From contig NC_091134.1 in assembly GCF_041381155.1 (NCBI RefSeq), positions 2,352,001 to 2,416,000 of the forward strand: a DNA stretch of 64,000 nucleotides. The letters are read 5' to 3'. Source of the stretch: Argopecten irradians (taxonomy: Eukaryota > Mollusca > Bivalvia > Pectinida > Pectinidae). Made by a program: the position numbers and the translations under genes. Below the pieces are notes generated by a model. The model saw nothing but the letters and a program-made list of their open reading frames with translations. It did not search any database and was not told where the DNA came from. This document shows positions 4,901-48,333 of the stretch, in pieces (the first letter of the stretch is position 1; the number at the start of each line of letters is the position of its first letter).

Positions 4901-7900
4901 CCATTGTGATATAGAAGCAATATTTCTAACAATATACATGTACCACATATTTATACATGTACACGCTTATTCTCGCGCGGTTGATAGTCTTTGAGATTTT
5001 GTGATCTAGAAAATGGTTGGGAAAAACTCTCCGTAAAATAACAAGGAATGAGTAACTTACATGCTCCTATAACAAGGTTACAAAATTTTGTGAAATTTTC
5101 AATTCACAACTTTTTTATTTGCATTTAAAATGAAAGATATAATAGAGTTTTTCAACCCACAAGATAAGATATTAAATACTTCTCCGCGAAAATATACGTC
5201 ATGTCAATTCTTTTCTTCTCTCCGTGTTAAAAAACCACTAGCTTACTTTTGCTGTGTATCAAATATATACAATAAAATATTTTGATACTGTGCAGTGATT
5301 GCGTTATATCTAACATACAGTTATATTCAGTTAGAAACTGGTCATCTAATTGAGATCAGGGTTATAAATTGTTCATGGTTAAATATGAAAGTTGCTATAC
5401 AGAAACTGGAACAGACAAATTAGTATTTTTCTGCAATTTAAAAGTTACATACTTTACATTATTATTATAACCACTGTATATATTTTTCTTCTTCATGAAA
5501 TATTAAAAATAATAGATTGCGTCACTAAAATGACACTATGACCTATATGGAATGAAGTACTGTTTGCGCATCCACCAGAAATAAGTTATATTATTTTTTT
5601 ATGTTATTAGGACAAACATTTATAGGAGAAAACACCAATCATATTTTAAACCATTAGTACCATGTATGGTCTGTTGGCGGTGGAGCTCTTTAAAATAAAG
5701 TTATAAACAATGTATGTGGTACAAAGGATTTTATAAAAATCTGTACAAGAATAGGTACCTGTCGATTGTTTACCTTTTGTGAAAGCGATTATCATCGAAA
5801 GGCGATTTCAGATTAATTCTTTGTATACAAAAATACTGTAAGAAAAATATAATGGTTTCTTACTATACAGAAATGTCGACATTGAAGGTGATAGTATTTT
5901 ACATTCAAGGTGAGAGTGTCCCAATGACAAAGACACCTTTACCCAGAAACAATGAAGAAGAAATATTCAACATCAAGGAACATGCTCGCCATGTCCTGTT
6001 CTGCGGTACCAAGGTCATACAGACTCAGCAACAAGGTCATGACAAGGTCAAGGCCATCGTAGTTCGCACAGGTATGTCAATTTGTCTTCATTCATTAACA
6101 CAAGTATTAAATATATGTAACATTCAATATCATTGTGAAAATAAAAGAGAACTTTAAAGATGCTCAACCGCCGACAAGTGGCATTTTTTCACTATCAAAA
6201 GCAGGAGCAGACGATTTAGTATTTTTCTTCAGTTACAAAAATTACTTACTTTACACTATTACCACCATTGAAAAGCTTGAGCTTCTAATCTTATTTCCAG
6301 TTAGAAACATGAAAAATAATTAATTACATCCCGAAAAAATTCTGTGGCACTATATCCTTTATGGAAAAATTACTGAATGCGCATGCACCAAAGGCAAAAT
6401 AACAAAAATATATTATTTTTTGTGTTAATTAGACATACATATACACGATTGAACACCAATTATTGATTAAATAATTAATAACATTTATGCTCTGTCGGCG
6501 GTGGAGCATCTTTAAGGATTATCCTTGATACTATAGAAAATGAGAACGACTTCAATAACAATCTGTGCATGTGTTTTGTAGGGTTCAGTACAACCAAGGG
6601 AGGACTAGTGAGATCTATACTCTACCCCAAACCTGTCGACTTTAAGTTCCAGAGGGACAGCTATATATTTATAGGTTTACTGGCTGTCATTGGAGCGACA
6701 GGATTCACTTACACAATGACACTTATGGTAACTAATTTCATATTCGTTTTAGTTTTATCTAGTTGTATCAAATATTGTATGGAAACCTAATCCATTCATA
6801 TGTACTGTCCTAAGATTCTGAAATTTTTGTTACACATGCATTTTTGCAAATATACATAAAGCAGGGAAATGTGTAAATTTTGTAATTACAGGCTTCAGTA
6901 AATATAATTTATCAACTTATTTATCTTCTCTAACTCATTTATTGTATTTTCGAGAGTTTTCTTACAAAGAAAATAAATAAAAAGATAAATTGTCAGCAAT
7001 TTTTAACATATGTAACTGAATCTTTGGAGGTCAGTGTACATACTATCGATATCGAATTTACATTCACCTTTTTAAGAAAACATTTGAAATAGTTTTATAT
7101 CGCAAATCAGAATGAATGAATCTTAAGTAATAAATTTTATTTCTCTTTTCGTAGATACATCGTGGATCGACTGTAAAGGAGATTATAATTCGTTCCCTGG
7201 ACGTAGTGACGACGGCAGTACCGGCCGCCCTCCCTCTGGCTTTGACCATAGGTGTGGTGTTCGCCCAGAGTCGTCTCAAACGACGTAACATATATTGTAT
7301 CAGTCCCAACTGTATAAACGTCAGTGGTACCATCAACGTCTTCTGTTTCGATAAGGTATTGTTGTAAAATTGATTAAGATAAGGTGTTGAAGTAAAATTG
7401 ATTAATTAAGATAAGGTATTGAAGTAAAATTGATTGATTTAGATAAGGTATTGAAGTAAAATTGATTGATTTAGATAAGGTATTGAAGTAAAATTGATTG
7501 ATTTAGATAAGGTATTGAATTAAAATTGATTGATTTAGATAAGGTATTAAAGTAAAATTGATTGATTTATATAAGGTATTGTAGTAAAATTGATTGATTT
7601 AGATAAGGTATTAAAGTAAAATTGATTGATTTATATAAGGTATTGTAGTAAAATTGATTGATTTAGATAAGGTATTGAAGTAAAATTGATTGATTTAGAT
7701 AAGGTATTGTAGTAAAATTGATTGATTTAGATAAGGTATTGAAGTAAAATTAATTAATTTAGGTAAGGTATTGTAGTAAAATCAATTAATTTAGATAAGG
7801 TATTGAAGTAAAATTAATTAATTTAGATAAGGTATTGAAGTAAAATTAATTAATTTAGATAGGGTTGTCTAAAACGGTAATGGATCTTTATCTTTCATTT

Positions 7901-27184: not shown

Positions 27185-27191
27185 ATGAAAC
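27185..27191 (+). CDS. TRPM: Tentative first coding exon of TRPM gene
   Basis: ATGAAAC is followed directly by a consensus donor gtaagtatt at 27192. It leaves one base, and the exon at 30335 needs exactly one base before its first full codon, which would give MKRNESKAS. A TATA-like run just upstream is too close to serve this ATG. This is inference from phase only. Confidence 0.25.
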
Positions 27192-27231
27192 GTAAGTATT
27201 CTTATTTTCATCGTGTACTTATATATTGTAT

Positions 27232-27440
27232 TGCCTTCTACTAAGAATTATTGAATATGACTATTGTATATTTAATTTTGTTTTCCGCTAAAAATTACTA
27301 AAAATCACTATTGTATATTTTATATTGTTTTCCGCTAGGAGGTACTGAATATCACTATTGTTTATTTTATATTGTTTTCCGCTAGGAAGTACTGAGTATC
27401 ACTATTGAATATCTTATATTGCCTTCCGCCTTGTGCTGTT
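27232..27440. repeat. About 60-bp tandem repeat, four diverged units
   Basis: Units share 'tattgttttccgctaggaag' and 'tactgaatatcactattg'. Confidence 0.75.
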
Positions 27441-30334
27441 GAGTATGGTCATAAATATTTCGCTCATTTGCATGTACAAGGTTACAATGCATTAGCTTTT
27501 AATTAGTTAAGACATTGATAAAGGTGACTCATTAAAATAAAATTAATTTGTCATGACTAAGTGATTGATTAAAGACATGAAAGCTAATTGATAGATTACC
27601 ATATTCATGGGCCCCATTGTACCATCATAATGGTAAAGGAATGTCGTTATTTAATTTTGAAAACAAAAATGAATTAGTAATTATGTAGTTTGATATAAGA
27701 GGTTAACAAATGTGTGGAAAAGGAAATTAAGGAGCGAATATTAAAACATCTGTGCCGGATATGACATAAAATATATGCTGTTCAGTCAGCAATTATAAAA
27801 TGTAAGATTCGTCATCGATGGTAGAGCGTGACGTCAGCAAATGAGAAAGATGTGAGGAAGTTTAAAATGAAAAAAGAGGGAAAGAACGGTGTGTTGTAAA
27901 AAATAAGATGAATGATGTCTTATTGTGTATGTAAAACGAAAGTGTTAAAAGATTATAAACTTCAGCGTATTATTGATAAATTATTAACTATCATTGAACA
28001 GGTGTAAACGAATGTTGTATAAAATATCGAAATAATGTATCAGAAGTAAGAGCGATTTACCAAATTTATCGTAAGAATAATTTATCAGATATAAGAATTA
28101 TTGATCAACTATAAGTCAGAATAATGTAAAATACAAATGTTAAGTTTCAAAAGTTATATTACAACATATTATACTTATAGTATAGTGTCATGAACCATTG
28201 ATGACGGTAGCCTGATAGGATGCTCCCACGTCATTCTCTAATCATGTTTAGGAAGAAAATGTTACAAGGTATACTACCTTTTATTATGGATCATCAACTA
28301 TATTCGTTTCCATATTCATACATGAACCTGACCAGTTCTTGTGTTTATACCTCATGCGTAATCTACCTACCAATTCAGGCGTAGGCAATTACGCCAAATT
28401 AAAATTATGATATATGGTCTGACGTAGGTACAATATACAAATTATGCATATTGCATTATGTAAATCGTTAAATGTATAATTAAATGTGTGAGACAATGGT
28501 ATCATTTAGACCAAGTCTCCGCGGTGAACCACATATATACTGCTTACGTTTATAAACAATGGACTAGGTGGACTATTTTTCTTTTAGATCGTATCAGTCA
28601 TATGTAACTAGACTTTAGTGCTTACAGCATCATGCATTCAATACTTCGTGGTAAGATTTGTTTATCATCGTGGAATACATTCAAATGTGGGATTTATTTT
28701 GAGGAAATTACTTGATGATTTAGCGCTGATTTTCGGATTTTGAGTTTGTATTTCTGTTACACAACAAAGTAGGACTGTGTTTAATACTGGCCGAATATTG
28801 GAGGCTAAGTCGAGTGTTACAGAGAATATCTAACATTACTGGATATCATTTCCGATCATTTTGTTCGTAATTCATTTTCAAATTTATTTTTTGAGATCTG
28901 GATGTAACCAATAGTTTTGAGTGAATGATGTTTGAAAGATATGAATTCTTATCATTTTATTGCCATAGCATATCATGAAATACTATCTAGATACTAATAT
29001 ATACTTGCCTATCACAGCTGCAGGATTCACATATATTCCCTAATGTTAAATTGTAATTTCTTTAAAAAGCCCCATTGATCGAGGTTACGTTTTGTTTTAC
29101 TCAAAATAATAAACATCATGGATCTGTATTATTTTGCCTTTTAAAATAGAACTTGATATAAATGAGCTATTCGATTGTAAAAAAACACTACAAGACTTGA
29201 CTTTAAAACATGCTGTGGTAACACATTCCTAGATTTCTTTTTAGTTCAAACTTCATATGTGTATTGTTTTATGCAGTGTTTTGTCTTGTATGATAGAAAT
29301 CTTTTCGATAGAGACTTTATGTAGATTTTGCTTGTTTAGCGGTAAATTATCTAACAGATATAAGTATATTGTGTAGAATTTGCCTTTTTAGCAATATATC
29401 CAACAGTTATATCTATTTTGTGTAGAAGTTGCTTGTTTAGCAGAAAAAGGAGTTCCCACGCGTACCATAAGAGATCCATCAATTTGAGTGCACTCCGGAC
29501 ACTTAGACTGTCGATCGTATAAGTCCAGCCGACAGTTATATACATGAGTGGACACCACTGACCTTTAGTAGTGTAACTTACGATGACAACAGGGACGTAG
29601 ATCACCTGTCTTATATTAGTCAATCACTATGTATAAACATAATCATAACGAAATAGTGCTATCGAAAATTATTCACTTCCAAATTATGTTATTGTTATCT
29701 TAGTGAGAGATTCTGATAAAATAGAACAAATTAAAATATCATGCGTTGAAAATAAATACTATTTCGTTAAGATTAAGTATTGAGTTTATCGAATATATCA
29801 TATTGCTATATGTCAAATATACTGTTTCTTATTCTGAAGTCTTGGAATGTTTTAGGAATATAGTGTTCATTCGGCTAAGTCCTCGGGAAGTCGGAATGTG
29901 CTAGCCAGTCACTATCATAATTTGACAATGTTTCTTTCCACATACCTCTCCAAGAAATCTTTTTTGTTGACTTTGTCATCTAAAGAAGAAAAACCCTTAA
30001 TGTTTCTTCCATATCATTGCAAATATTGGCACATGTTTTTTTGTTTGTTTTTTGTTTGTTTTTTTTTTGTTTTTTGTTTTTAACAAAAGTCATTTGTCTC
30101 GTTTAATTTAAAGTGATACCTCCATATTACTAAGAGTAAACGAATTTCATGTATACTTCTGTGGGCTACAAAATACATAAATAGTAAATAGCAATTAACT
30201 CGTGTATTGTTTTTACAATCGGCCATGGACGTAATCTATATTAACTTTGCTATTGTATGCAATTTACCTATATGATCTTTTATATCTCAATATAATAAAT
30301 TGACATTAAATGTACATGATTTATACCGTTTTAG
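27441..30334. other. AT-rich DNA upstream of first clear TRPM exon
   Basis: No coding segment was recognised on either strand. T-rich (ttttgttt)n occurs at about 30038-30082. It is either intergenic or the first intron of the TRPM gene. Confidence 0.4.
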
Positions 30335-30432
30335 GTAATGAGAGCAAAGCCTCGATATGGTCAGCCAGAAGTTCGGCATCACTTCGATGTCGCTTCAGCA
30401 TTGGCGAGGAGGATATTAATACCATGAAGAAG
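30335..30432 (+). CDS. TRPM: TRPM exon A
   Basis: The reading frame that joins the next exon encodes [18 protein letters not shown] and [13 protein letters not shown]. It aligns loosely with the TRPM 'LAWDRVDIA' segment. The acceptor is ttttag and the donor is gtaaga. Similarity is weak and phase fits. Confidence 0.6.
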
Positions 30433-33400
30433 GTAAGAGTATAAGAATAGTTTAATAGGCTTTAGCGTTTGATTAGCTAAGCAATAATGATGTAACTTTT
30501 TATAACGCCAACTGTAGCTATTGGCTAAACTTAAAGTTTAAGATTGTTTTATAAATGTGAGGACAGGTATTAGGGTATTAGATAATCAATTATGGGAGAG
30601 GAAGGACTGTCTATGAATTAATAAAAATAGATAATGATGAAATGAAATAAAATTAAAAAAAAAAAAAAAAAAAAAACCACTGTTCACAAAAAGGAAAAAA
30701 AATAATAAACGAGAAAAGAAAAAAGAAAGAAAAGCCCAATCAAACAGATAATTTCTTATGCATTTTTTATTATGATTTACATTTGAAATGCTATCCAACT
30801 ATAAATATGTCTTAAAATTTTTTGAAAACATTGTCAAAGCCAAGATTCCAAATATTTCACGATTACATGACAACGTAAGAAATAGGTTGAAATTGATGAG
30901 ATCAACGAGTATAATTTTATGAGAAAATGGAGAACAGCCTGACGAGTCGCGTTGATAGACCATTTTCCTAACATAGCGTAATGATTAGTTCTTGTATTTA
31001 GAGTCACAGATTCAGGCTGTAGAAAGGTTGAGTAACTAGGTTTTAGTTTTACAGTACATAGTGTGGATTACACAATGTTTTTCTTCGTTAGAAACTTCAT
31101 AGAAATGGACTCTAGCACAGTTTATTCTGAGCAGATGGTATTATACAGTAATGCATTTGCCTTTACTGGTAATTGATGTTTCAGTTTAGGAGGGTGTATA
31201 TTTACCGTTCATTGTTGTTTCTGTGTAGGAAGGTGTATATTTACCGGTAATTGTTGTTTCTGTGTAGGAAGGTGTATATTTACCGGTAATTGTTGTTTCT
31301 GTGTAGGAAGGTGTATATTTACCGGTAATTGTTGTTTCTGTGTAGGAAGGTGTATATTTACCGGTAATAGTTGTTTCTGTGTAGAAGGGTGTATATTTAC
31401 CGGTAATAGTTGTTTCTGTGTAGAAGGGTGTATATTTACCGGTAATTGTTGTTTCTGTGTAGGAAGGTGTATATTTACCGGTAATTGTTGTTTCTGTGTA
31501 GGAAGGTGTATATTTACCGGTAATAGTTGTTTCTGTGTAGGAAGGTGTATATTTACCGGTAATTGTTGTTTCTGTGTAGAAGGGTGTATATTTACCGGTA
31601 ATTGTACCTTTAATTATTAATTCTGTGTAAGAGGGTGTATATTTACTAGTTTTTGTTATTTCTGTGAAGGAGGGCACCCTGGAGCAGTCCATGATGGAGG
31701 CTTTAATGACTGACAGAGTAGACGCCGTCAGAGTCCTCATAGATAACGGCTTTAACATTCAAACCTTCCTGACTATAGCAAGGCTAGAGGAGCTGTACAA
31801 TACGGTATGTATAATCACCATCACAGCCTCACTTAACACTTCCCACGTAAGAATACTTTCAGGTTGCTTATTGTATTTTATGTTTTATCTGATACTTTGA
31901 GATAATATCTATCGCGTTGGTTGTGACTTGTCAAAATACATTGTGCTATACTTGGTATAGACTAGATTGAAATGTTGAAAGTTTTTTTATATATATATAA
32001 AACTGTATTGTTTTGTATTAGGCTGTTTAAATATCAACGAAATAGGTATATTTTACATTCTACATCATATTGAATAACATTATGACTTCCCTTTGCAGCG
32101 CCTGGGACCAGCAAACACTCTGCGCCACCTAGTTCAGGATGCTAAGAAAAAGGTAACTTATGTAAAACAACGTCATAGTTTCTAGTAATCTACATGAGGA
32201 TATAAAATTGAAAATGAATGGTATTGTTAAGTTGACGTTAACACTTGATGATTTTATAAGAGGAATTATTACATACACGAAAAAAACTTGTAAGTAAAAT
32301 CCAGTTACATGTTGAACGACCACAAAAGATCAACATGTCAGCTTTCATGTTATAAAGAAAGAAATATATGTTAAAACCTAAACTAGCGCGTACGTTGCTA
32401 TGAGGATACGTCTGTAACTGTCATCTCCTGACACCGTAATACATAAAACCAAGACATTAATCTGGGAATTTTCTATGACGTCATACCTCGTGAAAGTATT
32501 TGTTTTTCTTTGTCCTCTGAATTTGCCTTAGATGTCTACAAAGTATGTCTGCTTCAAACATTCCGCCATATAGAGCCGTCAATCTTGTGTTGAACTGTAA
32601 TTTATTTCATAGTGCACATTCATATAATTTAAGCTTTAAAAATAAAAATAAATGCAAATGCACCAAGAACAGACCATGATAGCCGACACCGTGTCATTTT
32701 ATATCATCGAGATTTATAGCTGTACATCACTACTACAGGGTGCAGAAAGTACAAAGCTTTTCTGTGCTTCCCCTACAACCCTATTACAGATCTTCAAAAC
32801 TTTAATATCCAAATTTGATACAATAAGCTGAAACAATATTTCATTTTTTTATATAATATGTAGTCGGTATCGACAAGAAGCACTAGTTTAGTGGTATCGA
32901 CATGTTCTTGTGACACTACTGTGAACGAAAACAGGCGAATATGGAGATCTGGGCTGATGATCTAGAAATTGTAAAAAGTAATCTATATACTACACAAATG
33001 ATCATCAAACATGTCTTAGTGAGCTTAATAATTGAGAAACTCACTCAATGTGTGACATAAGCCTTCTCTAAGTCGACAGTATTAGTAGTCGGTAATGCCA
33101 CATTGTCAAACTTGTTAACCTGTCGCGTGCCAATATGTGAAAAAAATGGTAATAAACTCGCATCTAGGACTGCAACATCAACCAAACATTGAAGTCATAT
33201 TAATTTAAGATCTTTAACAAATACATAACATAATGTACATCAACCCAATTTGTAAAAAGTCTTATAGTGTACATTTATGATTTGTCGTCATTAATAAAAA
33301 AAAAAGTCTTTGAAAAAATGTTTCATTTAATTTTTTATTTCCTTTTGTTTTCACATACTGGGCTGTTTTCACATATTGGCGCGTGACCTTAATTTCTCTA

Positions 33401-36400
33401 ACCAATAGTATCTGTCTACAGTCGATAGTTCTATGCGCACTAAAACATGTCTGTACTTATTCTGACTAAAATATTTTCTTCGTGAAGAGGACGTCGAAAA
33501 CTTCCAATTAAACAGACAAATAAAGGTTTCGGTTCTTTGGTTGTTCTAATATATACATATTACTGACATTTTCAGACGATTTCCTCCTCTTACCGATACA
33601 CCATGCTGGATATCGGCGCCGTGGTAGAACAGTTGATGGAAGGCGCCTATCGCTCAGCCTACTGTCGTAAACGCTTTAGGCAGAAGTACCACGCCATCAA
33701 ACGAAATGTAAGTATTAAATATAAAATACCACGCCATCAAATGTAATGTATTTAATATAAAATACCACGCCATCAAATATAATGTAAGTATTTAATATAA
33801 AATACCACGCCATCACATGTAATGTAAGTATTTAATATAAAATACCACGCCATCACATGTAATGTAAGTATTTAATATAAAATACCACGCCATCAAATAT
33901 AATGTAAGTATTTAATATAAAATACCACGCCATCAAATATAATGTAAGTATTTAATATAAAATACCACGCCATCACAAGTAATGTAAGTATTTAATATAA
34001 AATACCACGCCATCAATCAAATATAATGTAAGTATTTAATATAAAATACCACGCCATCACATGTAATGTAAGTATTTAATATAAAATACCACGCCATCAC
34101 ATGTAATGTAAGTATCTAATATAAAATACCACGCCATCAAGTAATGTAAGTATTTATATAATATAAAATACCACGCCATCACATGTAATGTAAGTATTTA
34201 ATATAAAATATCACGCCATCAAACGTAATATAAATGTCTAATGTAAAATACCACGTCATTTAACGGGATTTCTTTAATACGAAATATAACGCCATCAAAT
34301 GCAATGTAAGTATTTAACTTATAATATCTTAATATAAAATCTGTGTTGAACCGCATCTAAAAGTCATTTATTGGAGGGGGCGGGGGGTTGGTTAAAAGTT
34401 TACTCAAGCCGAACAAATCCTATTAAGGCCGCATTTTTCAAAGTATTATACAGAGCCACAGTTGTGACGAAGCTGAAACTATATAATAATGTAGGTATTG
34501 CTTTGTTTAATCCATGTCAATTTTTTTAACATTAAATATACTTAAGACTGTCATCAAACATTTGCAGGTGTTGAAAGTGTCAATTCATAGGCTTAGTATT
34601 GCAAGCTGACTTACATTTTACAATTTTGGAATTACAAGCATATGTATATGTATTTGTTCATGTTTGTGCACGTGCACATTTTACCGGTATATTCGTTTGA
34701 CACGTTTATCACGCTTATGAGATATCATTCAGATATTTGTCATCGACAGAAATGAAAACAACACGGCTTTTAGTTCCATTGTCTGTTATTCAATATGTGA
34801 CTTATATGATGGGTTTTTTTCTCAGAGCATTGCTGGTAACATGGGACGACTTGTGACCACCATGCCTATGATAATGGACACAACAGGAGCTCAGGAACTG
34901 TTCCCCCATCCTTATCACGACCTCCTTATGTGGGCTGTCATAACGAAACGCCAGGAGATGGCCATGTATCTATGGCGACAAGGGAATGAAGCGATGGCTA
35001 AGGTAGGTCTTACCTCCGGTAAACAACGAAAAAGTTAATTATCTTAAGCAAAGGGACAACTTAGAAAAAATGTAGGTATACCAATCGAGAAAAGGCATAC
35101 GAGGTACGCATACTGTCAATACAGCACCTACTACAAATGGTATGGAAAAAACTATGACAACAAGACGTAGCGTTTGAGGATTTGCCATTAGAACTGGTTA
35201 CTTAGTATTCCCTGAGGACCGAAAAATATTAATAACAATATATAAATGTATTGTTCATGAACCTTTAGATACATGATAAGTGATTGGATTGCTGGTTTAT
35301 CTTCATGATATGTACTATACAGGTAATATTGTGAAAACTGGTCTTAATTTACCTTTACGATATTACAGGCCTTGGTGGCGATAAAGTTAAATAAGGCGAT
35401 GGCTGCTGAAGCAGACCGGTATGATCTGGAAGTGGATATCTCTGATGGACTCAGATCGAACGCCAAGTAAGCACACACTATCTACTGTATTATATATATG
35501 CTTTAGCTGTTTGTCTACTGTCGGAACAACATCTTAATATTAAATGCTTAATACCTGTGGTTTCATTGGTTTGTTATTAGTTTTAATTCATCTTGTTTTA
35601 AAACCTGTAACACGTTAATAAAATATCGTAAATGTGATAGTTATACAAAATAACGTTCACATTCCCTTGTCTTCACTTGTTCGCTTGTCCAAGTACCCAG
35701 GAAGTTATTGAATACATGTATATGGCTTACTTTAATTGGTTATAAAGGTATAATTGTTAAATGCAGCTATGAAGATCTGAGGCCAGTTTCATGAACAGTC
35801 CTTACCTTAAAGAATTCCTGAACTTAAAATTCTCCATAGAAAAGCATTACAGAAGTTACGGCAACAAACTTAAGTTAAGGAGTCTTCCTTAAAATCTGTA
35901 ATGCTTTCCAATGGAGAATTTTAAGTTAAGGGATTCCTTAAATTTAAGGAATGTTTATGAAACTGGGCCGTGATATCGCACCAGTAAGGACACAATGATA
36001 CTATTTACAGAGCCTTTATGAAGTTGTCACTGGAGCTACTAGAACATTGCTACAAAATGGATGATGCGTGCACGCAGCATCTCCTAACGTATGAACTGAA
36101 AAACTTCGGCAAACAGACCTGTATTAGTTTGGCTGTGGCTGCTAACCACCGTCAGTTCGTGGCCCATAGATGCTGCCAAGTCCTCCTAAACGACATGTGG
36201 ATGGGCGGACTTCGGACGAGGAAGAACAGCAGTTTAAAGGTAAAGGCGGTTAATGTCGACATATCACTTCATTAATCTTAAATTGGTAAAATTTAATTAT
36301 AAGAGCAACAAATAGCAACAAATCAGAGCATAAATACCATTAATACCAGATATCCTTTACTGAATATTTCATAATTATGCAACTCTGATCCAATATCGTT

Positions 36401-39400
36401 TTTAATTCCGGGTGAATACTTAGTATTACATGAAAATGTAATTTTCATACAAATGATCCTTTTTTTAGATCTGCTGCCTTATATATCAAGTTTCACGTGA
36501 AAGCATGTCATGTCGGCTTCAGTACAGACTGGTGACATATAACTTCAAATTAAAAAAAACCCCGCTAATTAGATGTCTTTGAGTTATTTTTCTAATTCCT
36601 TTATATATATATTGTATATTTCTTTCTATAGGTTATATTGGGAATACTTTGTCCACCGTGTATTGCCTTCCTAGAATTCAAGAGTAAAGAGGAACTGAAG
36701 TTGATGCCTCAGACGCTTGAGGAACATTTGAACCAGCTGCAGGCCCAAGGTATACAGGAGAGGTGCATGTCTATTAGTGAAGATTTCGGAACCATTAACG
36801 AGGTAGGGGCACTTTACCAGCTAATTATTTAATTTATCACGGAAACGCCATTTAAATACACGATTGGTGGAGTTTTCTGACTTCATATGGAGACTTTACC
36901 AAATATTGAGAATCATAATATTAGATTTTTTCTTCGTCTTTACCTAAAATAAATCAATTAATAAAGAAATTGCAAACCTTTTTAAATTCAAATGAAGATA
37001 TATGAGAATTATAATGATAATTATATATTTATATTGTTACTATAAAGTTCAAATGAAAATGATTGTAAATTAAACTATTTCGTCGAATTATCATAGAAAA
37101 ATATTGTATTGCTGTTGTCATTTGCCGATTTGTAAAGAAATATAACGTTTCTTTATGTACGTATATGATATGAAATGGTGTTTGTATCGAATTGTTATCA
37201 ACATGCTACGATAAAAATAGATTGAGTAATCTAACAAATTATGAACTTCCATGATATAAAATGTTGTTTTTATTACACTACATTTAATATAAAATCATGA
37301 TAAAAACACACCAATGTCGTGATTTTAAACTCCAGGGTTACAGTAGTGAAGACAACACGGAGACTAGTTTCCAGAACACCCCCACCAGTCCCAATTTACC
37401 CACAAGTCCCTGCGTCAGCAACAACACCAGCTTCCACTTCGGCCATAACCCTCTGAGGCCGAACGAGTCTCTGACCACCACTGGGTCAGTATTTACAGAC
37501 AGTTCTAACGGGATCTTTTTCTCGGCCAAGAAGAAGAATAATCAGCTTCGATTTATAAGGAAAATGTATGAGTTTTACAACGCCCCGATCACAAAGTTCT
37601 GGATGTATGCTGTGAGTTATACAACAAAATTTCAATCAAATAGAATATCGTCATTTTACATATTTCTGATGTGTTGATCTTATTTTGTGCCGCGCATGAC
37701 AGTGCTACGATATATCACAACAAAATACATTTTATATTATTGGATTAACCTGACGTATTTTTTTCAGTCTTTTGTTAAATCTACATAGTTCATTACAGTT
37801 CTATCTTGTGGATATCTTAAATTATTAAATAAATATATTTGTATAATTATTTTAACTCTTTTCTCAGCCAAAATTTAACTCTTAAGTTGGACTGCAATTA
37901 CTGTATCGCATTTTATGTGATGTTAGCATAGCGAAATGTGTATAGGTTTATTTTGTGCGGGTAAATTAATTGTTTTAAATGATTTGTTGTTGTAGATGAC
38001 CTACATCCTATTCCTGATGTGCTATACGTATGTGGTACTGGTGAAGACTTACCCACAGCCCAAGTGGCAGGAATGGGTCGTCATGGTGTACATAGCTACC
38101 ACAGCCCTGGACAAAATCAGATTGGTAAGTCTCCCCTTCACAACTTTATAGGTACAATAGGCTTACATTGCTACCACAGCCCTGGACAAAATCAGATTGG
38201 TAAGTCTCCCCTCCATAACTTTATAGATGTATCAGGCTTACATTGCTACCACAGCCCTGGACAAAATCAGATTGGTAAGTCTCTCCCCTTCCACAACTTT
38301 ATAGGTGTATCAGGCTTACATTGCTACCACAGCCCTGGACAAAATCAGATTGGTAAGTCTCTCCTTCCACAACTTTATAGGTGTATCAGGCTTACATTGC
38401 TACCACAGCCCTGGACAAAATCAGATTGGTAAGTCTCTCCCTCCACAACTTTATAGATGTATCAGTCTTACATTGCTATCACAGCCCTAGACAAAATCAG
38501 ATTTGTAAGTCTCCCCTCAACAACTTTATAGGTACATTTCTGCATGTTTTTATTATCAGTTGGAGTTGAATAAACAAATAGTTAAATACAATAAGATCCC
38601 GTTTTTTAACAATTTCGAGAATCATATCTAAACGACCGTCCTAGTGATATAACATTACTTGCACATAACCCACGTACTTACAATTCGTTATGCGAGGATT
38701 AAAAAAAATTATATTCTATTTAGAAACTGTTAACCTAGTGGTTAAATATAATTCAAAATAACTCATTCAAAAGATATAGGTATTGCCTTTCAAAACTACA
38801 AATACATTATACCAATGCTTTGATCAAATAATATTATTTTTTGTTTCAGATAATTGCATCCGAGCCTGTGAACCTGCGGAAAAAACTGAATTTGTATTTT
38901 AGTCAGAAATGGAATATTTGGGATACCATGGCCTTGCTGACTTTCGCCATGGCCGTGACCTTACGATTTATACCCAGTGCCCTACGTGACGCGCGCGTGA
39001 TGTTTACCGTAAACATTGTGTTCTGGTACCCCAGGATTCTACAGATCTTAACTGTCAACAGGTACCTAGGACCGTACATCAAGATCATGGCCAAGCTGGT
39101 AAGGCAGCTTTATAATTTGACTTTTCTCTATAGATTAATAAATTAAGTCTCGTTACACCGCATTAAAATATAGACCTAAAGCAGACGTCTATTGACACAT
39201 GTTTTCAAAACTATGTTTTTTTTTCAAATTCAAATGCTGGCAATTTGCATTACGTATTTATGAATTTACATCATAGGACTACATAAAATGCAATTTGATA
39301 CGAATGGTATCAAGTATTATTTCTCACTGAATTCGTCTGATATCACACACCGCAATTCGTGTAATAATGAATATGTTATGAAAAGTATCTTTTTAACTTT

Positions 39401-42400
39401 AATGTATTTTCATTTGAATTTTGATGTAATGCGTATATCATTCTTGTTCTTCTTGTCCTTCAGTTCATTGACATGTGCTACTTTTGCGTCATCAAGTTCA
39501 TTGTGGTGATCACGTTTGGAATCGTCAGGCAGTCTATACATTTCCAAAATGAAGAACCCTCCTGGAAACTCGTGCGGAACGTTTTCTTCTACCCTTACTG
39601 GATGATCTACGGAGAATTGTTCGCACACGAAATCGACAGTAAGTAAAAAAAAATGACAAACGCAACGCTGATTTTAAGCATCAGCATATGTTTGTGTTGA
39701 ATCATATTTTGCGAAATATAAAATCTCAATATTGATAATTTTAATTCAGCACAATCTAATTGTTGAGAAATAATATATTATTTCAGCTTGCTACGATGAA
39801 GAAAATCACCCGAATGGCTGTACGTACGCTTCCTGGGTGGCTCCATCGTTCATGTGTCTCTACCTACTTCTGATTTACGTCCTTCTTGTCAACATGCTCA
39901 TCGCCAGATTCAAGTAAGGCAATATTACAGTTACGCAGTTTATAACACAACTGATTTATATTACATAAAACTTAATATAAGTAATTATTATACATGTAGT
40001 TCTTATAGTAATTTAATTAGTCGCAAAATTTTTAATTTGCGTCTTCAAATAGAACATTTTTTGGAATTACTTTTTTTTTACTTTGGCATGTTAATTCAAT
40101 TTCCATTACTCCTAGCATTATCGAGGATTCCAAAACATTTTGCAATGCAGACTATTTTTGAAGGTGGAGATACTATTTTTTTGTCTTTTGAGTAACCCAA
40201 TAATGTCGCTTCCAGAAATATGGATTGTGTAATTGTCTTGTATCTTGTTCTAGCGCCACCTTCATCGCCAATAACTCGTATGTGAAGGAGATTTGGAAGT
40301 TCCAGCAGTATATGCTTGTGATGAAATACAAGATGTGCCCAGTACTTCCACCGCCATTAGTTTTTATCAACCATATATTCCTCAGTATCAGATTCCTCGT
40401 CCGCTGTTGTAAGGGAACAGATGTCAAATACGAAAACGGGTTAAGTAAGTACGGTTTATCGGTTTAATTAGTGGTAATCTATTAGACCTACGCAGATACA
40501 ATTTGTTATGTTTAGGTGTTGGGTAGCGTTACTTCTTAAATTCTCTCAACATTATCATTCATCTCGCGTGATATCACTTAATGTACTTTCAAGTAACATG
40601 ATTTCGTAAAGGAATACCCAGGCAAAATATCTTAAGGTAAATTGTGATGAAGAAAATCTTCGTATGAAATTCAGCTCAATTTTAGGTGAATTTCATGTTT
40701 TTGACCTGAGTTTTTGTTCTTTTATTTGTTTGATTTGAAATTTACCATTTTGAAGTTTGCCTGTGTACCTGTCCAAAAATAGATATTGTCACTGATTTCA
40801 GAATACCTCTATCATATCATCCTAAGTTATAAATTTTATATCCAGTATGGAGTAATTTAAACGTTAGATTTATTTTACATGAACGTCCAACTTATCAACT
40901 AATGTCTAATGTGTAAGTTTCCATGATCAATCGTGTTATTCTTCCTCTTCGTTCTATGTTTTTATTTATTTTACAAACGCCATATTCTAAAACTAAATGA
41001 TAAATCAAAAATTAAATTACTAGAAACTGTCCATATGTCAAGTATTTCTCCTTGATATGACCTATTCTGCCTTGTCTTTACAGAGCTGTACCTGTCAGAT
41101 AAAGACAAGGAACACCTTCACGAGTTTGAATCGGAATGTGTCGAGGACTATTTCAGAGAAACAGAGATGAACTTCCGGTCGTCAGAAGAAGAAAGAATAC
41201 GTGTCATAGATGAGAGGTACGGACTTTAATTTCTTATCTATCTTCAAGGTAACAATATCTAAATTTAGTGACAAATTCATACGCTTATGGATGACTAATA
41301 TAAAAGGAATGGTGAAGAATGCTTGAACAATCAACATGATTTATCAGTGTCGGTTTAGATATCGTATGGCCAGTTATATTATCAGGTCAAAATGTTCACA
41401 ATTTTGGTTTTAAATTTGAGAGAATGTGAATAATAGCGACTTAAAATTTGGCTGTATATGGCTGTATATGAGTATTTATGATTTATTACTACTTAAAAAT
41501 CCGCGTATGATATTTGCACAACCACCCAAATGTCCCTCTAAATCGCGAAACTATCATCTCCGAAAAAATAACCAGCCATACGATATTTTAGAACGAGAAA
41601 GACTGATACGTGATGTACAAAATGCGTATATCACTGACAGAATCAATTGATGCTTTGTACTCGCTTTATTGTTATTATACGTTATTATTTATTGATGCTA
41701 TTGATTCTACTAGCGGATACCATAGCTTAACGTCTTCAGTTTTTCACAAGAATGGCCAGGATAAGAGTATCGTTTTAGAAAGAAGTTCTCGTTCTGAATA
41801 GTTTCATGTTTTATGTCTGCAGGACCGAGAAACTTAACCTTGGTATGGATGGTATAACACAGAAAGGCCAATCTATGACCTTGTCCTTACAAACAGCCAA
41901 CCAGCGGATGTCTCACCTTGAAGAAATATCCAACAAGACATCAGAAACGTTACAAGCCTTGCAGGCACTGCTAGACCTAGGAGTAAAGAGTATTGGTGCA
42001 AATGGCTTCGCGTCACGTGTAAGCAGTATCGAAAAGGCTTTAGCCAGCGAATCTGATAGTGAAAGCGACAACATCACGAAAAAAGACGAAAATGTGACAG
42101 TCAACTATGATTCAACTTCACCAAATAGATCATTGATGAGAAAAAGATCGGCAAAAACAAACCAGGAAAATAAATGTGACACCCAAGTTCAAAAGAAAGA
42201 GAGAAAAATTTCGATACACTCACTTCAGGAAAGTTACAAAATGTCGAACGGTAACGATAATAAAGACAGCAGCGCAGTCAAATATGATTCATCCGCACCA
42301 GATAGATCATTGGTGAAAGCAAGGACAAAATCAGAACTGGGGAATAATTTCGATATCCAAGTTCAAAAGAAGGGGAGAAAGATCTCGATACACTCACTTC

Positions 42401-42687
42401 AGGATTGTGACAAAATGCCGGGGGACAAGGAAGATGACAACAACACAGGCAAATATGATTCATCTTCACCCGACAGATCATTGACGAGACCAAGGACAAA
42501 ATCAGAACAGGATAATAACTTTGATATCCAAGTTCAAAAGAAGGGGAGAAAGATCTCGATACATGTTTTCAATACAACGGAGGAGGAGGAAGACGCACCA
42601 GAATCCAAGGACACGCCGATACCAACAACAGACGGAAGAAATAGTTTGACTACTACAGACTGTAGAGTCCGAAGGGTGTCAGCATGA
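30335..42687 (+). CDS. TRPM: TRPM (melastatin) cation channel, N-terminal region not found
   Basis: TRPM channels are tetrameric, mostly Ca/Mg-permeable cation channels. Sixteen exons join in phase to about 1079 residues. In order: the C-terminal half of the cytosolic melastatin region ([49 protein letters not shown]), S1-S6, pore [19 protein letters not shown] domain [17 protein letters not shown], the LPPPL motif, [10 protein letters not shown], a coiled coil, and a 57-residue unit repeated three times before the stop. There is no alpha-kinase or NUDT9 domain. The pore resembles the TRPM1/3/6/7 group (family knowledge). The SLOG/LSDAT half present in typical TRPMs was not found within 8 kb upstream, so the gene may be a short paralogue or have unrecognised 5' exons. 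Three introns carry tandem arrays anchored on splice junctions. Confidence 0.95.
31180..31668. repeat. 39-bp tandem array anchored on a splice acceptor
   Basis: About 12 units of 'tttctgtgtaggaaggtgta' plus 'tatttaccggtaattgttg'. They end at the true acceptor 'tttctgtgaag|gaggg' (31669). Each unit looks like acceptor, 18 open bases (EGVYLP) and a donor-like ccg|gtaat. The long minus-strand reading frame here is a by-product of the 39-bp period. Confidence 0.92.
31670..31804 (+). CDS. TRPM: TRPM exon B
   Basis: Forty-five codons, [19 protein letters not shown] to [13 protein letters not shown], a near-diagnostic TRPM segment. Confidence 0.97.
32099..32152 (+). CDS. TRPM: TRPM exon C
   Basis: [18 protein letters not shown], equivalent to 'GPTNPLFHLVRDVKQ' in relatives. 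Confidence 0.95.
33576..33707 (+). CDS. TRPM: TRPM exon D
   Basis: [19 protein letters not shown] and [15 protein letters not shown], matching 'LIDIGLVIEYLMGG.YR..YTRKRFR'. The exon end and its donor are copied in the array that follows. Confidence 0.97.
33694..34330. repeat. About 40-bp tandem array anchored on a splice donor
   Basis: About 14 units of 'taccacgccatcaaatgtaa' plus 'tgtaagtatttaatataaaa'. The unit is the last 21 coding bases of the exon ending at 33707 (YHAIKRN) plus its donor and the first intron bases. No unit has an upstream acceptor. Confidence 0.92.
34826..35002 (+). CDS. TRPM: TRPM exon E
   Basis: Encodes [19 protein letters not shown] and [15 protein letters not shown], matching 'FPYPLNELLIWA.LMKRQ.MA.FLWQHGEE.MAKA'. 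Confidence 0.96.
35369..35466 (+). CDS. TRPM: TRPM exon F
   Basis: [20 protein letters not shown] and the residues following. The conserved ALVA.K....MA.EA pattern is clear. Confidence 0.94.
35781..35969. mobile_element. MITE with 'ggcccagtttcat' type ends
   Basis: The left end 'ggccagtttcatgaacag' and right end 'atgtttatgaaactgggcc' are inverted repeats. The inner arms 'aattctccat.gaaaagcatt' also pair. It is about 189 bp, in a TRPM intron. Confidence 0.75.
36011..36239 (+). CDS. TRPM: TRPM exon G
   Basis: Encodes [28 protein letters not shown], and [18 protein letters not shown], all conserved in the pre-S1 melastatin region. Confidence 0.97.
36632..36802 (+). CDS. TRPM: TRPM exon H (pre-S1 segment)
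   Basis: Begins [19 protein letters not shown], matching 'VILSILVPPAILLLEYKTK'. A variable acidic linker follows. Confidence 0.96.
37336..37611 (+). CDS. TRPM: TRPM exon I (linker and start of S1)
   Basis: A Ser/Thr/Pro/Asn-rich linker is followed by [18 protein letters not shown], the conserved entrance to S1. The donor is gtgagt. Confidence 0.95.
37996..38124 (+). CDS. TRPM: TRPM exon J (S1-S2)
   Basis: [20 protein letters not shown] (S1), then [20 protein letters not shown] (S2). The last 36-39 bases and the donor are the template of the five-copy mini-exon array just downstream. Confidence 0.97.
38125..38540 (+). repeat. TRPM: Five tandem copies of a 39-nt mini-exon with splice sites
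   Basis: Copies lie at 38161-38199, 38236-38274, 38314-38352, 38390-38428 and 38466-38504, period 75-78. Copies 1-4 encode [13 protein letters not shown] exactly. Copy 5 encodes [13 protein letters not shown]. Each is preceded by AG (tag once, cag four times) and followed by gtaagt. At 39 nt each would be spliced in without shifting frame, adding a second copy of the S2 end. Whether any is used is unknown. Confidence 0.92.
38850..39098 (+). CDS. TRPM: TRPM exon K (S3-S4)
   Basis: Encodes [20 protein letters not shown] (S3) and [20 protein letters not shown] (S4 and linker). Confidence 0.97.
39464..39638 (+). CDS. TRPM: TRPM exon L (S5 and pore)
   Basis: S5 helix, then [20 protein letters not shown] and GELFAHEID. 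The pore-loop Glu of 'WMI(F/Y)GE' is present. Confidence 0.97.
39787..39913 (+). CDS. TRPM: TRPM exon M (S6)
   Basis: [19 protein letters not shown] with the paired outer-pore cysteines, then S6 [18 protein letters not shown]. Confidence 0.96.
40254..40444 (+). CDS. TRPM: TRPM exon N (TRP domain)
   Basis: [19 protein letters not shown] (TRP helix) and [14 protein letters not shown], both strongly conserved. Confidence 0.97.
41084..41216 (+). CDS. TRPM: TRPM exon O
   Basis: [20 protein letters not shown] and [14 protein letters not shown], matching the post-TRP linker of TRPM1/3/6/7. Confidence 0.96.
41823..42687 (+). CDS. TRPM: TRPM exon P (coiled coil, triple repeat, stop)
   Basis: A heptad-rich start ([20 protein letters not shown]) is the tetramer coiled coil of TRPMs. 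Three units then start near 42103, 42280 and 42451 with the pattern [29 protein letters not shown]. They are polar, with basic-Ser sites. Stop at 42685-42687. Confidence 0.95.
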
Positions 42688-44280: not shown

Positions 44281-45321
44281 ATGTACATGATTAAAAACCA
44301 TTTGGAGCGTCTTAAACAGTGTTGTAGTTGTAGAATGAATCATTTAAATAACACAGAAATTCAAAACATAAAATAACAAAATACATGTAATTATGAATCA
44401 TAGGCATAAACAATAGTTGTTTCGAGAGTGGTATAATAGCAAAATGGATTGCGTTCAGATATGAAAAATATCAGTGTTTGTTCACAACTCTGAAAATGTC
44501 GGTCTACAGTAAAGCAACATTTACTTCTTCAAACAATTATTTGACAAAACGTGACAGCATATTGACACTAGCCTTTAATGTATACAAAAGCGTTACACTA
44601 ACCGATACTATTTCACATCACAGAACCATGCACAGTGCATTCCTAATGTTTTTTAACAGTACGCCCATCACCAGCGTTTCCTCTAAACTATGCTAGACAG
44701 CTCTTCAAATGAGCTATTTACTCAACACTTGATCTACAAAGTGTCACAATTTTGTCGATATCTACTTTGGAATAAATACCATTGTATCGTCTAGATTTGC
44801 TATTTGTTCCAAGGATCTGTCTTCTGGTAGAAAATATGTCCATCCTTGTGCTGTATCTCTGGGTTTTGATACAAGATACATGTAAGTACTGCAGTCCATA
44901 ACTTATGAGTGAATAAGTCAGATTCAAAGCGACATGATGATTCCTTGAAATTAATGTTGAAAATTATACAAGACTATATGACGTACATTTCATTTAAAAT
45001 TTTCCCCATGATAAGGAATATGAAATATGACGAATAGAAACCTATGATTTACTAGCTAAAGTATCAGATGTTATTATTTTTTTCCTTAATGTAGTGTAAA
45101 AGTTCCAATTTAAAAAAAAACTCACAAAAGACGACTAAATTAAGGATGTATTTTTTCTACAATTATCTCAAATATTTGACTAAGTGTTAAAATAGTGTCG
45201 TGCAATTTTTGTAGATGTACATACTTACATAGGTTCACAAGTACGATGTGACTGGTAGTCTACCATGTATTCCGGGTGAACACCTCAGTAAAGTAACCAT
45301 GTTTAAATTTACCATTTTTCC

Positions 45322-48300
45322 TTGAAAAAAAGGAATATAAACAGCAACTTTGTCAATTTTATTTCAGTAAAATATCATTTTTTAATACCAGGCATTCAGA
45401 TAAACGCACAGCCTACGACTGGGTCCCTAACAAGATTTCGTTTAGTTGGGAGAGGTTTCGACAAAAGCTTCAAGATTGATGGAAACTCGACACAACACAT
45501 ATCACCTGTAGAACATCTATCGTATAATCTCACAATAAATCATGAAAGTAACGAAGGGAATGAAAGACATAAGACGCAACTTTCAGAAATGGGAATCCAT
45601 GATAACAGCACCATGTTTGGTCACGAATTACATATAAATGCGACAGAGATCTCTACCTCAACAAAACAGAAGGGAAACAGCGACAAATTGAGCAACCATG
45701 TACATCATTTCCAGACGACATGGGACGAAAACGTGAGTGAAGACCTTCCTCAGTGTAAACCGGAATCATGTAACACAACGGGAATTTATATTCCATCCTG
45801 TCGGACCGGAAGTTGCGAAGACGTCAATAACTCGTGTAATTGTGATGTTTTCTGTGCAATCTTTGGAGATTGTTGTTCTGACGTCATTTCCGCCCTCACA
45901 GAACATACAGTAAATGTGATGATTTATCGGCGATTTAACTGGCAGAGCTGGTTTCTCTTCAATAATGACGCTAATTTGATTTCCTTATATGTTAACTGGA
46001 GCGAATGTACCTCTATACGTAATGGAACAAAGGACATCTCGATACGGATGATATCGAAATGTCCAAGAGATGGTAACTATTATCGGCTTTATGCTTTATG
46101 TGAGAATTCTTCCAATCTTCGTTTTGTATCTCTGTATGAAAATGTGGGAATAGTAGGCAGCAAAATGCAGATCGTTTTCAAAAACAAGTTCTGTGCTTGC
46201 TGTCATGGTTTCGCCGGTAAACAAGTGATACCATGGAAAACTGACTTTCATGACCCATCTAGTAAATTGTATTTTCCGCCACAGAAGGCAACTGGCCAAT
46301 TTAGAAAATGTCGCAATTTTGAACCTGATATCAAAAATGATTTAACAGAATGTAAGCAGGGTAATTACATATTTGATATGAGAACACTTTGCGGTTTGAA
46401 TATTTTCCCAATTAACACCAAATTGATTGATTCTGTAACGAGTATTTCACTTTTGTCCGATGTTACACACTCCATGAGAGAATGTGAAACTACATACTTT
46501 GAAGTTGACCACAATCAGTACCTGTCCAGTTCCGCCATACATTTAGACCATCTCCCGGGCGTTGTTCACCCATTATTTAGCTTTTATGGTTTACCGCATG
46601 TGCATGTCCCTGTTAAAAAGCCTACATTGACTCTACCTGAATTCCCACATCAAACCACAGAATATCCGTTTATTCCGTGCCCGGTTGGGTTTTCCAAAGC
46701 AGGACATCAGTGTCAGAAAGACACTCTTTCCCAGAATGATGAGTCTGTCTTCAACATAACAATGAAGGTGAGATCGTGTTCCTTTTTAAACATCACGTTA
46801 TATGACCTTAGTGAGTCCGGCATATTAAATTTCGGAGTTCTTCAAAACAGAACAGACAAGAACAGGAACGACAATATTTTCAAAATTGATTTAAACAATC
46901 AAAGTATGTTCCTTCCATTAATAAGTGTTATCGAAGAATCGTGCTTAAACACTGATCCAGAGTTTTTAATAACTTCTTTGAATTCTGTGACACAAGTAAT
47001 GAGTTGTCTTGGCAACGAAACACGCGCCGTCTTACATAATGTCATTTTGACAACAATCAACTCTACCTTGTTTATTACTAATAGCCAGGCTACATATCTC
47101 ATTCCCTTTCCATTTGACAAATTTTCTCTAACAAATCACATTGATACATCAAATGTATCTCAACGGACTCTTTCTTATTGTTCAATTGAACCATCGATGT
47201 ATTTGAACTGTTCATCTGTCGACGCCTTTCCTTTAGACCAATTTATCTTTCAAAACAATACGGTTCGTCTTCGGAATGCTGCTAAATCTGGACAGGTGAA
47301 ATTTAGTCATCATACAATAATGGATAATACGCTTTTAGTGTGTGTTGAAAGAGAACTAGTTACATCTCACTATAGTCACATGAGAAGAATAGCAACATAT
47401 GTAAGTAATATATGCATATCGTTTTCAATAATATCCCTTATACTTTTGGTTTACTATCATTTCACCATTCCGAGACTTCTAAATCTTCATGGTAAGATTG
47501 TAGTCTCTTTCTCTATTTCATTAGCCATTTCACAACTGCTTAGCTTGTTAAATTCGTTATTTTCTGACGCAGATGGCTATTTAAAGGAGATCTTGATATT
47601 AAGATACATATGTAGTATTCTCGGTAGAGTTTACCATTTCTCCTGGCTATGCACGTTTGCTTGGAGCGCCATTATGGCTTATGATATTTGCCGTAATTTT
47701 AGTGTTTGTACCTCCTTACAACAACAGATAGACTCGGACCAAGGTAGGTACCGATTTAGGGTGTATCTTTCAGTCGCTATCCTACTTCCATTTTCCATTG
47801 TTTTGGTCTCGAACATTGTTGCTGTCTTCTCGAACTCGAACCAGTTTTATTTGGGATATGGTGATGATTTCTACTGCTCGATTCGTACATTCGAGGGGAA
47901 GCTATACGCATTCGACGCCCCTCTGTTCGTTATTTATGGATTCAGCATAGTGTGTTTGGTTATCTCCCTTCATGGATTAGAATATTCAAGATGGAAGGGG
48001 AAACATCTGCAGGTTACACGAAAGCGTGACAAAAGCCGTTGTATGGCGTACACCCGGATCACACTAATGATTGGCATTACGTGGCTATTTGCAGTGGTAG
48101 CGATCTTTACCAATTCATTCTGGATTGGTCTTCTGAGTGTGTTTATTAATGGGCTACAGGGCTTAAGTGATGTTTGTGGGACTTTTATTAAATGTTCAAA
48201 CAAGGAAGGTGATACTAGCTCGATTCCGTTGCCGAATAAACAAAGAGAGATATTCTGTTTACATGACAAAAAGTGTGTCTCGTTGATTCGTCGGTTATTG

Positions 48301-48333
48301 GTTAGGACAACACTATACAATCGATTTATGTAG
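45322..48333 (+). CDS. Secretin/Methuselah-like GPCR with somatomedin-B-like module
   Basis: One open frame of 1003 codons. Residues about 142-188 carry nine cysteines ending CDVFCAIFGDCCSDV, the somatomedin-B pattern. A long, N-glycosylation-rich ectodomain with further cysteines follows. Seven membrane helices span about 690-950: SWLCTFAWSAIMAYDI is TM4-like, a Cys before TM3 pairs with one in DDFYCSI, and GITWLFAVVAIF is the class-B TM6 signature. The tail is short and basic. No HL.T-type GPS was seen, which favours a Methuselah-like over a self-cleaving adhesion receptor. The first 23 residues are not a good signal peptide. An acceptor 'ttaataccag' at 45391 suggests the exon really starts at 45392, after an unseen signal exon. 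Ligand unknown. Confidence 0.85.
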   Translation: MKKRNINSNFVNFISVKYHFLIPGIQINAQPTTGSLTRFRLVGRGFDKSFKIDGNSTQHISPVEHLSYNLTINHESNEGNERHKTQLSEMGIHDNSTMFGHELHINATEISTSTKQKGNSDKLSNHVHHFQTTWDENVSEDLPQCKPESCNTTGIYIPSCRTGSCEDVNNSCNCDVFCAIFGDCCSDVISALTEHTVNVMIYRRFNWQSWFLFNNDANLISLYVNWSECTSIRNGTKDISIRMISKCPRDGNYYRLYALCENSSNLRFVSLYENVGIVGSKMQIVFKNKFCACCHGFAGKQVIPWKTDFHDPSSKLYFPPQKATGQFRKCRNFEPDIKNDLTECKQGNYIFDMRTLCGLNIFPINTKLIDSVTSISLLSDVTHSMRECETTYFEVDHNQYLSSSAIHLDHLPGVVHPLFSFYGLPHVHVPVKKPTLTLPEFPHQTTEYPFIPCPVGFSKAGHQCQKDTLSQNDESVFNITMKVRSCSFLNITLYDLSESGILNFGVLQNRTDKNRNDNIFKIDLNNQSMFLPLISVIEESCLNTDPEFLITSLNSVTQVMSCLGNETRAVLHNVILTTINSTLFITNSQATYLIPFPFDKFSLTNHIDTSNVSQRTLSYCSIEPSMYLNCSSVDAFPLDQFIFQNNTVRLRNAAKSGQVKFSHHTIMDNTLLVCVERELVTSHYSHMRRIATYVSNICISFSIISLILLVYYHFTIPRLLNLHGKIVVSFSISLAISQLLSLLNSLFSDADGYLKEILILRYICSILGRVYHFSWLCTFAWSAIMAYDICRNFSVCTSLQQQIDSDQGRYRFRVYLSVAILLPFSIVLVSNIVAVFSNSNQFYLGYGDDFYCSIRTFEGKLYAFDAPLFVIYGFSIVCLVISLHGLEYSRWKGKHLQVTRKRDKSRCMAYTRITLMIGITWLFAVVAIFTNSFWIGLLSVFINGLQGLSDVCGTFIKCSNKEGDTSSIPLPNKQREIFCLHDKKCVSLIRRLLVRTTLYNRFM

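What the first reader, a model, noticed from the sequence alone, without database searches (positions are those of the whole stretch)
37996..38540. Five tandem, splice-ready copies of a 39-nt TRPM mini-exon encoding the end of helix S2
Directly seen: after the exon ending [13 protein letters not shown]|gtaagt, a 75-78-bp unit repeats five times. Each copy has AG, then 39 open bases encoding [13 protein letters not shown] (identical in copies 1-4; [13 protein letters not shown] in copy 5), then gtaagt. Length is divisible by three, frame is preserved and both splice sites are intact in all five. Identity of the first four suggests recent expansion, homogenisation or selection. If spliced in, they would lengthen the S2 end or S2-S3 linker of the channel by 13 residues per copy. 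If used instead of the normal donor region, they would be silent.
Basis: partly seen in the sequence, partly recalled or inferred. Interest (0 to 1): 0.9.

Follow-up and report, generated by a model that had tools for sequence, protein, structure and literature searches.

The report
Minisatellite copying an ion-channel splice junction
A short piece spanning the end of one exon and the start of the next intron of a TRPM-type ion-channel gene has been copied five times in a row inside the intron, which is most likely a neutral repeat of a kind already described elsewhere and not a set of working extra exons.

Summary
A 75-78-bp unit at 38089-38533 follows exon 37996-38124 of a TRPM1/3-like gene, and each of five extra copies holds 39 open exon-derived bases plus GTAAGT. 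The mini-exon reading is weak. Spacers are 36-39 nt, while the smallest of 14 introns in this gene is 148 nt. The proposed acceptors score 0.4-4.2 and have another AG 9 nt upstream; none of 22 acceptors taken as genuine has an AG nearer than 16 nt. Each downstream donor brings in an in-frame stop. Three more arrays in the window repeat a splice junction, and the typical unit of one has no AG beyond its donor. The same repetition therefore occurs without mini-exons. Best explanation: a boundary minisatellite ("mirage" in amphioxus, PMC3087553) spliced out with the intron, perhaps born by duplication at a shared GTACAT. Junctions are not hit more often than random positions (5 of 47 against 199 of 1,200), although array counts show weak, post hoc enrichment (4 of 14, P 0.024). 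No RNA and no related genome was available, and the species is unknown.

The parts
31670..42684 (+). TRPM1/3-like channel gene, 15 exons found here (the N-terminal part, several hundred residues, was not found)
   Evidence: Exon chain with consistent phases; TRPM3/1/7 chains of the PDB, best E 1.7e-202; Pfam TRPM2-like domain in two exons
37996..38124 (+). Native exon (S1 and S2 by recalled topology), phase 0 at both ends, donor TTG|GTAAGT
   Evidence: donor score 8.4
38089..38533 (+). Boundary minisatellite: native junction plus five copies, unit 75-78 bp (39 exon-derived bases and 36-39 spacer bases in the copies)
   Evidence: TRF period 76, 5.9 copies, 93%; unit and spacer lengths
38161..38199 (+). 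Copy 1, 39-nt exon-derived stretch [13 protein letters not shown]
38236..38274 (+). Copy 2, same 39 nt
38314..38352 (+). Copy 3, same 39 nt
38390..38428 (+). Copy 4, same 39 nt
38466..38504 (+). Copy 5, diverged 39 nt [13 protein letters not shown], weak donor TTT|GTAAGT
   Evidence: acceptor 0.4, donor 4.1
38149..38151 (+). In-frame TAG met when any downstream donor copy is used as an alternative 5' splice site
   Evidence: all five alternative donors give a stop at the same codon
38088..38093 (+). GTACAT in the exon at the left end of the array; the same six bases lie at 38532-38537 in the intron at the right end, a candidate for the founding duplication
38850..39098 (+). Next exon, the natural splice partner
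7346..7865 (+). Sister array at a donor of an upstream P-type ATPase gene (32 bp, 16.4 copies, GATAAG|GTATTG)
   Evidence: junction 7355 score 50, shuffle maximum 29, z 12.3
31162..31669 (+). Sister array at the acceptor of the TRPM exon 31670 (39 bp, 11.4 TRF copies to 31605, then degenerate copies up to the native acceptor)
   Evidence: junction score 29, shuffle maximum 24, z 5.7; alignment of 31601-31674 to the unit, score 71, no shuffle control for that one
33687..34317 (+). Sister array at the TRPM donor 33707 (40 bp, 15.8 copies, 21 exon plus 19 intron bases)
   Evidence: junction score 63, shuffle maximum 29, z 16.7

Best explanation
This is a minisatellite that happens to span an exon-intron boundary, of the kind called a 'mirage' in amphioxus. 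A local duplication joined the exon near GTACAT (38088) with the intron near the same six bases (38532). That made a tandem copy holding the last exon bases, the donor and the first intron bases. Unequal exchange or slippage then raised it to five copies and kept the inner ones alike, while the outer copy diverged. In the transcript the native exon is spliced from its own donor (38124) to 38850 and the whole array leaves with the intron. Shown here: the array, its derivation from the boundary, the sister arrays, the poor acceptors, the short spacers and the stops behind alternative donors. Inferred: the duplication route, the turnover, use of the native donor, and neutrality.
For: The array starts inside the exon and runs only into the intron. 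Three more arrays do the same at other junctions of this gene and of its neighbour, and a two-copy duplication lies at acceptor 13916 (score 32, maximum of 40 shuffles 22). In array 33687-34317 the typical spacer GTAAGTATTTAATATAAAA is 19 nt and has no AG outside the donor itself, yet most units keep the exon part and donor. Spacers are 36-39 nt, or 27-30 nt with the earlier AG, against a smallest TRPM intron of 148 nt, n = 14. Acceptors 0.4-4.2, AG 9 nt upstream, against 3.4-11.4 in 22 genuine ones with no AG nearer than 16 nt. In amphioxus, RT-PCR suggests that such arrays do not disturb normal splicing, and edge copies escape homogenisation (PMC3087553, passages; PMC3902484, passage).
Against: The exon-derived part varies less than the spacer. 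With the native copy and copies 1-4 it is 1 of 36 sites against 8 of 39 columns (substitutions, Fisher P 0.029) or 11 of 39 with indels (P 0.003). With copies 1-4 alone it is 0 of 39 against 3 of 39 (P 0.24) or 6 of 39 with indels (P 0.025) (which replaces a slightly miscounted first version). Weak selection or conversion from the native exon would also give that. All 39- and 48-nt stretches are multiples of three and nine of the ten are open. No RNA, no second individual and no related species could be examined.
Confidence: 0.85

Rival explanations
1. The copies are true alternative mini-exons: one copy at a time is included, adding 13 (or 16) residues after S2 of the channel.
For: Copies 2-5 are open with either acceptor and keep the frame; the first intron would be 102-341 nt for copies 2-5. 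TATAG acceptors score 4.7-6.7, inside the genuine range 3.4-11.4, with no AG nearer than 22 nt upstream. My simple exon-chaining script also picked three of the copies as exons, so gene finders may do so. The exon part varies less than the spacer.
Against: Spacers between copies are too short for serial inclusion. 45 of 344 other intronic AGs in the TRPM span score at least 4.2, sister arrays included. The typical unit of a sister array has no acceptor at all.
Confidence: 0.08
2. The extra donors act as decoys: use of a copy's donor in place of the native one gives a stop and transcript decay or a truncated channel, so copy number tunes expression.
For: Donors of copies 1-4 have the same nine bases as the native one (8.4), and all five alternative donors give a stop at the same codon.
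Against: No RNA. The native donor is not weak: 8.4 is above the median, 7.7, of the 25. The same would follow for any donor array. Reported RT-PCR in amphioxus suggests no disturbance of regular splicing (PMC3087553, passage).
Confidence: 0.05
3. The array or its copy number is an assembly artefact.
For: PMC3087553 says that one such array appears aberrantly assembled in a genome draft. No reads were available here.
Against: Copies differ by their own substitutions and indels, and several independent arrays are present.
Confidence: 0.02

Closest known systems
Amphioxus 'mirages': minisatellite-like tandem duplications of exon-intron boundaries in Adh3, globin BflGb6/BflGb9, TnC and PGBD5 (PMC3087553 and PMC3902484, passages)
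   Same: Tandem units spanning a 5' or 3' splice boundary, many with AG/GT signals, edge units diverged; unit length of the same order (10-72, 60, 108 and 150-160 bp there, 75-78 here)
   Different: Different gene (TRPM); organism unknown here; four arrays lie in one 64-kb window; length instability and regular splicing were reported there, not tested here
[quoted passage not shown]
   Same: Tandem duplication across an intron-exon boundary that carries splice signals with it; the human cases are mainly minisatellites
   Different: There new introns or altered transcripts are reported; here no new splicing is shown and acceptors are weak
Intronic minisatellite CeRep25B linked to multiple alternative splicing in C. 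elegans (PMC4039745, abstract and outline only)
   Same: A minisatellite near splice choices
   Different: There the repeat carries motifs over-represented in genes with multiple splicing decisions; here the unit is a copy of the gene's own junction

Membership tests
Mirage (exon-intron boundary minisatellite) | Tandem copies include both exon and intron bases of a native splice boundary | tested here: met
   junction alignment score 90 against shuffle maximum 25
Mirage (exon-intron boundary minisatellite) | Both 5' and 3' boundaries can be affected | tested here: met
   Donor arrays at 7355, 33707, 38124; acceptor array at 31670, the last through degenerate copies
Mirage (exon-intron boundary minisatellite) | Edge copies diverge, inner copies are alike | tested here: met
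   Copies 1-4 have identical exon parts; native copy 0 and copy 5 differ
Mirage (exon-intron boundary minisatellite) | Length instability among alleles or somatic cells | not testable with these tools
   One haplotype only; no whole genome held
Mirage (exon-intron boundary minisatellite) | Regular splicing is not disturbed | not testable with these tools
   No RNA data
Mirage (exon-intron boundary minisatellite) | Occurs in a cephalochordate (the reports found under this name) | not testable with these tools
   Organism not given; G+C 33.6%. No relative in genome contigs or viral contigs with one exon, 38850-39098, as query
Tandem alternative cassette exons | An acceptor comparable with the gene's own, with an AG-free zone | tested here: inconclusive
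TATAG sites: 4.7-6.7 and no AG nearer than 22 nt, so met.
Tandem alternative cassette exons | Introns between copies long enough to splice | tested here: not met
   36-39 or 27-30 nt against a minimum of 148 nt in 14 TRPM introns; applies to serial inclusion, not to inclusion of one copy
Tandem alternative cassette exons | Transcripts that include a copy | not testable with these tools
   No RNA data
TRPM channel (TRPM1/3/6/7 group) | Sequence match to TRPM channels over most of the product | tested here: met
   Two stretches, 2-318 and 399-759 of 759 aa, E 1.7e-202 to a TRPM3 chain

The most novel reading that the evidence does not exclude
The array is a working splice device in a TRPM channel: one of copies 2-5 is sometimes included through its TATAG acceptor, adding 16 residues after S2, or the spare donors divert transcripts to a stop. 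Copy number would then set channel form or amount and could differ between individuals.
Probability: 0.1. Interest if true: 0.7.

Novelty: new member of a known kind. Interest (0 to 1): 0.3.

Why it matters
Boundary minisatellites are raw material for intron gain and alternative splicing, and four in one 64-kb window make the process easy to watch. If the species is not an amphioxus, it would add a lineage to reports that, under the name 'mirage', I found only for amphioxus; boundary tandem repeats are also reported in human and potato genes. As a channel novelty it is probably nothing.

Tried and rejected
Serial mini-exons: rejected on spacer length. A special hot spot at splice junctions: not supported by position. 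5 of 47 junctions had a nearby copy with score 29 or more, against 93 of 600 and 106 of 600 random positions in the two gene spans (exons of the ATPase gene were not excluded from the sampling, those of TRPM were), Fisher P 0.42. Two other stretches of the window gave 29 of 600 and 22 of 600. That control counts every copy of a long array, so it is not the same question as where arrays start. By array, 4 of 14 that I selected (period 20 or more, at least 2.4 copies, 60 bp or longer, overlaps merged, starting between 2,900 and 42,700) span a junction where 1.28 are expected with an assumed 80 junctions, P 0.024; in TRPM alone 3 of 4, expected 0.72, P 0.012. Three arrays passing the same filter outside that range were left out of the count (1-189, 53207-53434, 57555-57683). 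Both tests came after looking, so they are leads only. Coding selection on the copies: the exon part varies less (P 0.003 to 0.24 by how sites are counted), too few sites to decide.

Relatives: scans of genome contigs and viral contigs with one exon (38850-39098) as query gave none. Rfam and tRNA scans of the window: 0 and 0. Naming the organism: a phrase of the 8767-9416 repeat was searched in papers and found only an unrelated vector paper. My impression that this repeat is of molluscan type is recall and unproven. N-terminal TRPM exons: a regular-expression search for a few recalled motifs in six frames gave two unconvincing places. TRPM3 splice variants: one paper search, listing only, nothing used.

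Limits: splice scores use generic metazoan frequencies written from memory, not a trained model. Of 47 junctions, 18 are in the ATPase gene and rest on my reading; of five ATPase exons given to Pfam, two matched E1-E2_ATPase (one below its cut-off), one drew only an unrelated weak match and two matched nothing. The 148-nt minimum is for the TRPM introns only. The last paper search listed four papers holding 'mirages', tandem, intron and splice; two are the amphioxus papers and two look unrelated by title and start of abstract.

Full report
What is there. Each copy has an AG, 39 open bases and GTAAGT. Copies 1-4 have identical 39-base parts and copy 5 has four changes. A 50-base probe over the native donor scores 90 against the downstream intron, with a maximum of 25 in 40 shuffles.

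The gene. I built a 15-exon chain from 31670 to 42684 with consistent phases. Its first 759 residues (exons 1-14, the last codon shared with exon 15) match PDB TRPM3 chains best (E 1.7e-202), then TRPM1 and TRPM7. In the one alignment shown, the native junction (KIRL|IIASEP) is aligned without a gap to TRPM3, so no copy is needed for a normal channel. That this point is the end of S2 is recalled TRPM topology. The N-terminal exons were not found, so I cannot say that the gene is complete.

Are the copies exons? Four results speak against it. First, the spacers are 36-39 nt (27-30 nt with the earlier AG), while the 14 TRPM introns run from 148 to 1,423 nt. Fourth, the copy-5 donor is below all 25 genuine ones. 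Two results speak for it. The earlier AG (TATAG) scores 4.7-6.7 with no AG nearer than 22 nt, so if a copy were used, that site and a 48-nt exon would be likelier; copy 1 then has a stop. And a single copy (2-5) could be included by skipping, with introns of 102-341 nt and an open frame.

The surroundings change the picture. Three other arrays repeat a splice junction: 7346-7865 at a P-type ATPase donor, 33687-34317 at TRPM donor 33707, and 31162-31605 with degenerate units running on to TRPM acceptor 31670. Acceptor 13916 has a short two-copy duplication. In the array at 33707 the exon part is 21 nt and the typical spacer 19 nt, with no AG outside the donor, so those copies cannot be exons; yet most units repeat exon end plus donor as in the array in question. 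The open frame and intact donors at 38089-38533 therefore need no function.

Are junctions favoured? By position, no: 5 of 47 junctions against 199 of 1,200 random positions in the same spans have a similar copy nearby (Fisher P 0.42). Windows inside TRPM exons gave 2 of 314, overlapping windows, the coding array at 42050-42600 left out. By array, 4 of 14 against 1.28 expected, P 0.024, with an assumed junction number and selection after the fact. A minisatellite-rich region whose arrays sometimes catch a junction is enough.

How it probably arose. GTACAT stands in the exon at 38088-38093 and in the intron at 38532-38537, the two ends of the array. A duplication between them, followed by unequal exchange, gives the structure; the extra bases at the first junction would suit a copying error during repair. 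This is inference. The lower variation of the exon part (P 0.003 to 0.24 by how sites are counted) may be conversion from the native exon, recent spread, or weak selection.

What is known. Tandem duplications of exon-intron boundaries are called mirages in amphioxus (passages of PMC3087553). There they occur at both 5' and 3' boundaries, vary in length, have edge copies outside the homogenisation and do not seem to disturb splicing; PMC3902484 (passage) adds PGBD5 and cites Adh and TnC. PMC4974935 (passages) and PMC2812944 (passages) report that such duplications, in potato and human genes, can create new introns. The passages I saw of the earthworm metallothionein paper mention intronic minisatellites, and exon duplications absent from transcripts, but no boundary array (PMC12783039); those of PMC5896119 added no case. 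The present array meets the sequence features of a mirage that I could test. Instability, splicing and the organism could not be tested.

Verdict. Real, nicely seen, but most likely a neutral boundary minisatellite: a new member of a known kind.

Noticed in passing
7346-7865, 31162-31669, 33687-34317: Three further minisatellites whose units contain a splice junction of the neighbouring exon, two in the same TRPM gene and one in a P-type ATPase gene.
   Followed up: yes
13871-13934: Two-copy duplication of the acceptor boundary AG|GTACTA of the P-type ATPase exon that begins at 13916; the upstream copy carries a stop.
   Followed up: partly
1-189: 54-bp tandem array whose unit contains GTAACTCGGTAAGT; no exon could be assigned because the window starts here.
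   Followed up: no
42097-42563: Coding tandem repeat of 171 bp (57 residues, about 2.7 copies) in the C-terminal exon of the TRPM gene, rich in K/R/S.
   Followed up: no
22000-31670: The N-terminal part expected of a TRPM protein was not found upstream of 31670 by reading ORFs and a small motif search in six frames; the gene may be truncated, rearranged or have exons I could not recognise.
   Followed up: partly
45307-48333: Open frame of 1,008 residues without introns with a secretin-type seven-transmembrane domain (Pfam 7tm_2, 33.6 bits) and a cysteine-rich N-terminal stretch.
   Followed up: partly
8767-9416: Diverged tandem repeat of 135-162 bp with GTTATGGCCCTTT motifs inside an intron of the ATPase gene.
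   Followed up: partly
16920-18057: Long diverged 28-bp minisatellite in or near the ATPase gene, not tied to any junction found.
   Followed up: no
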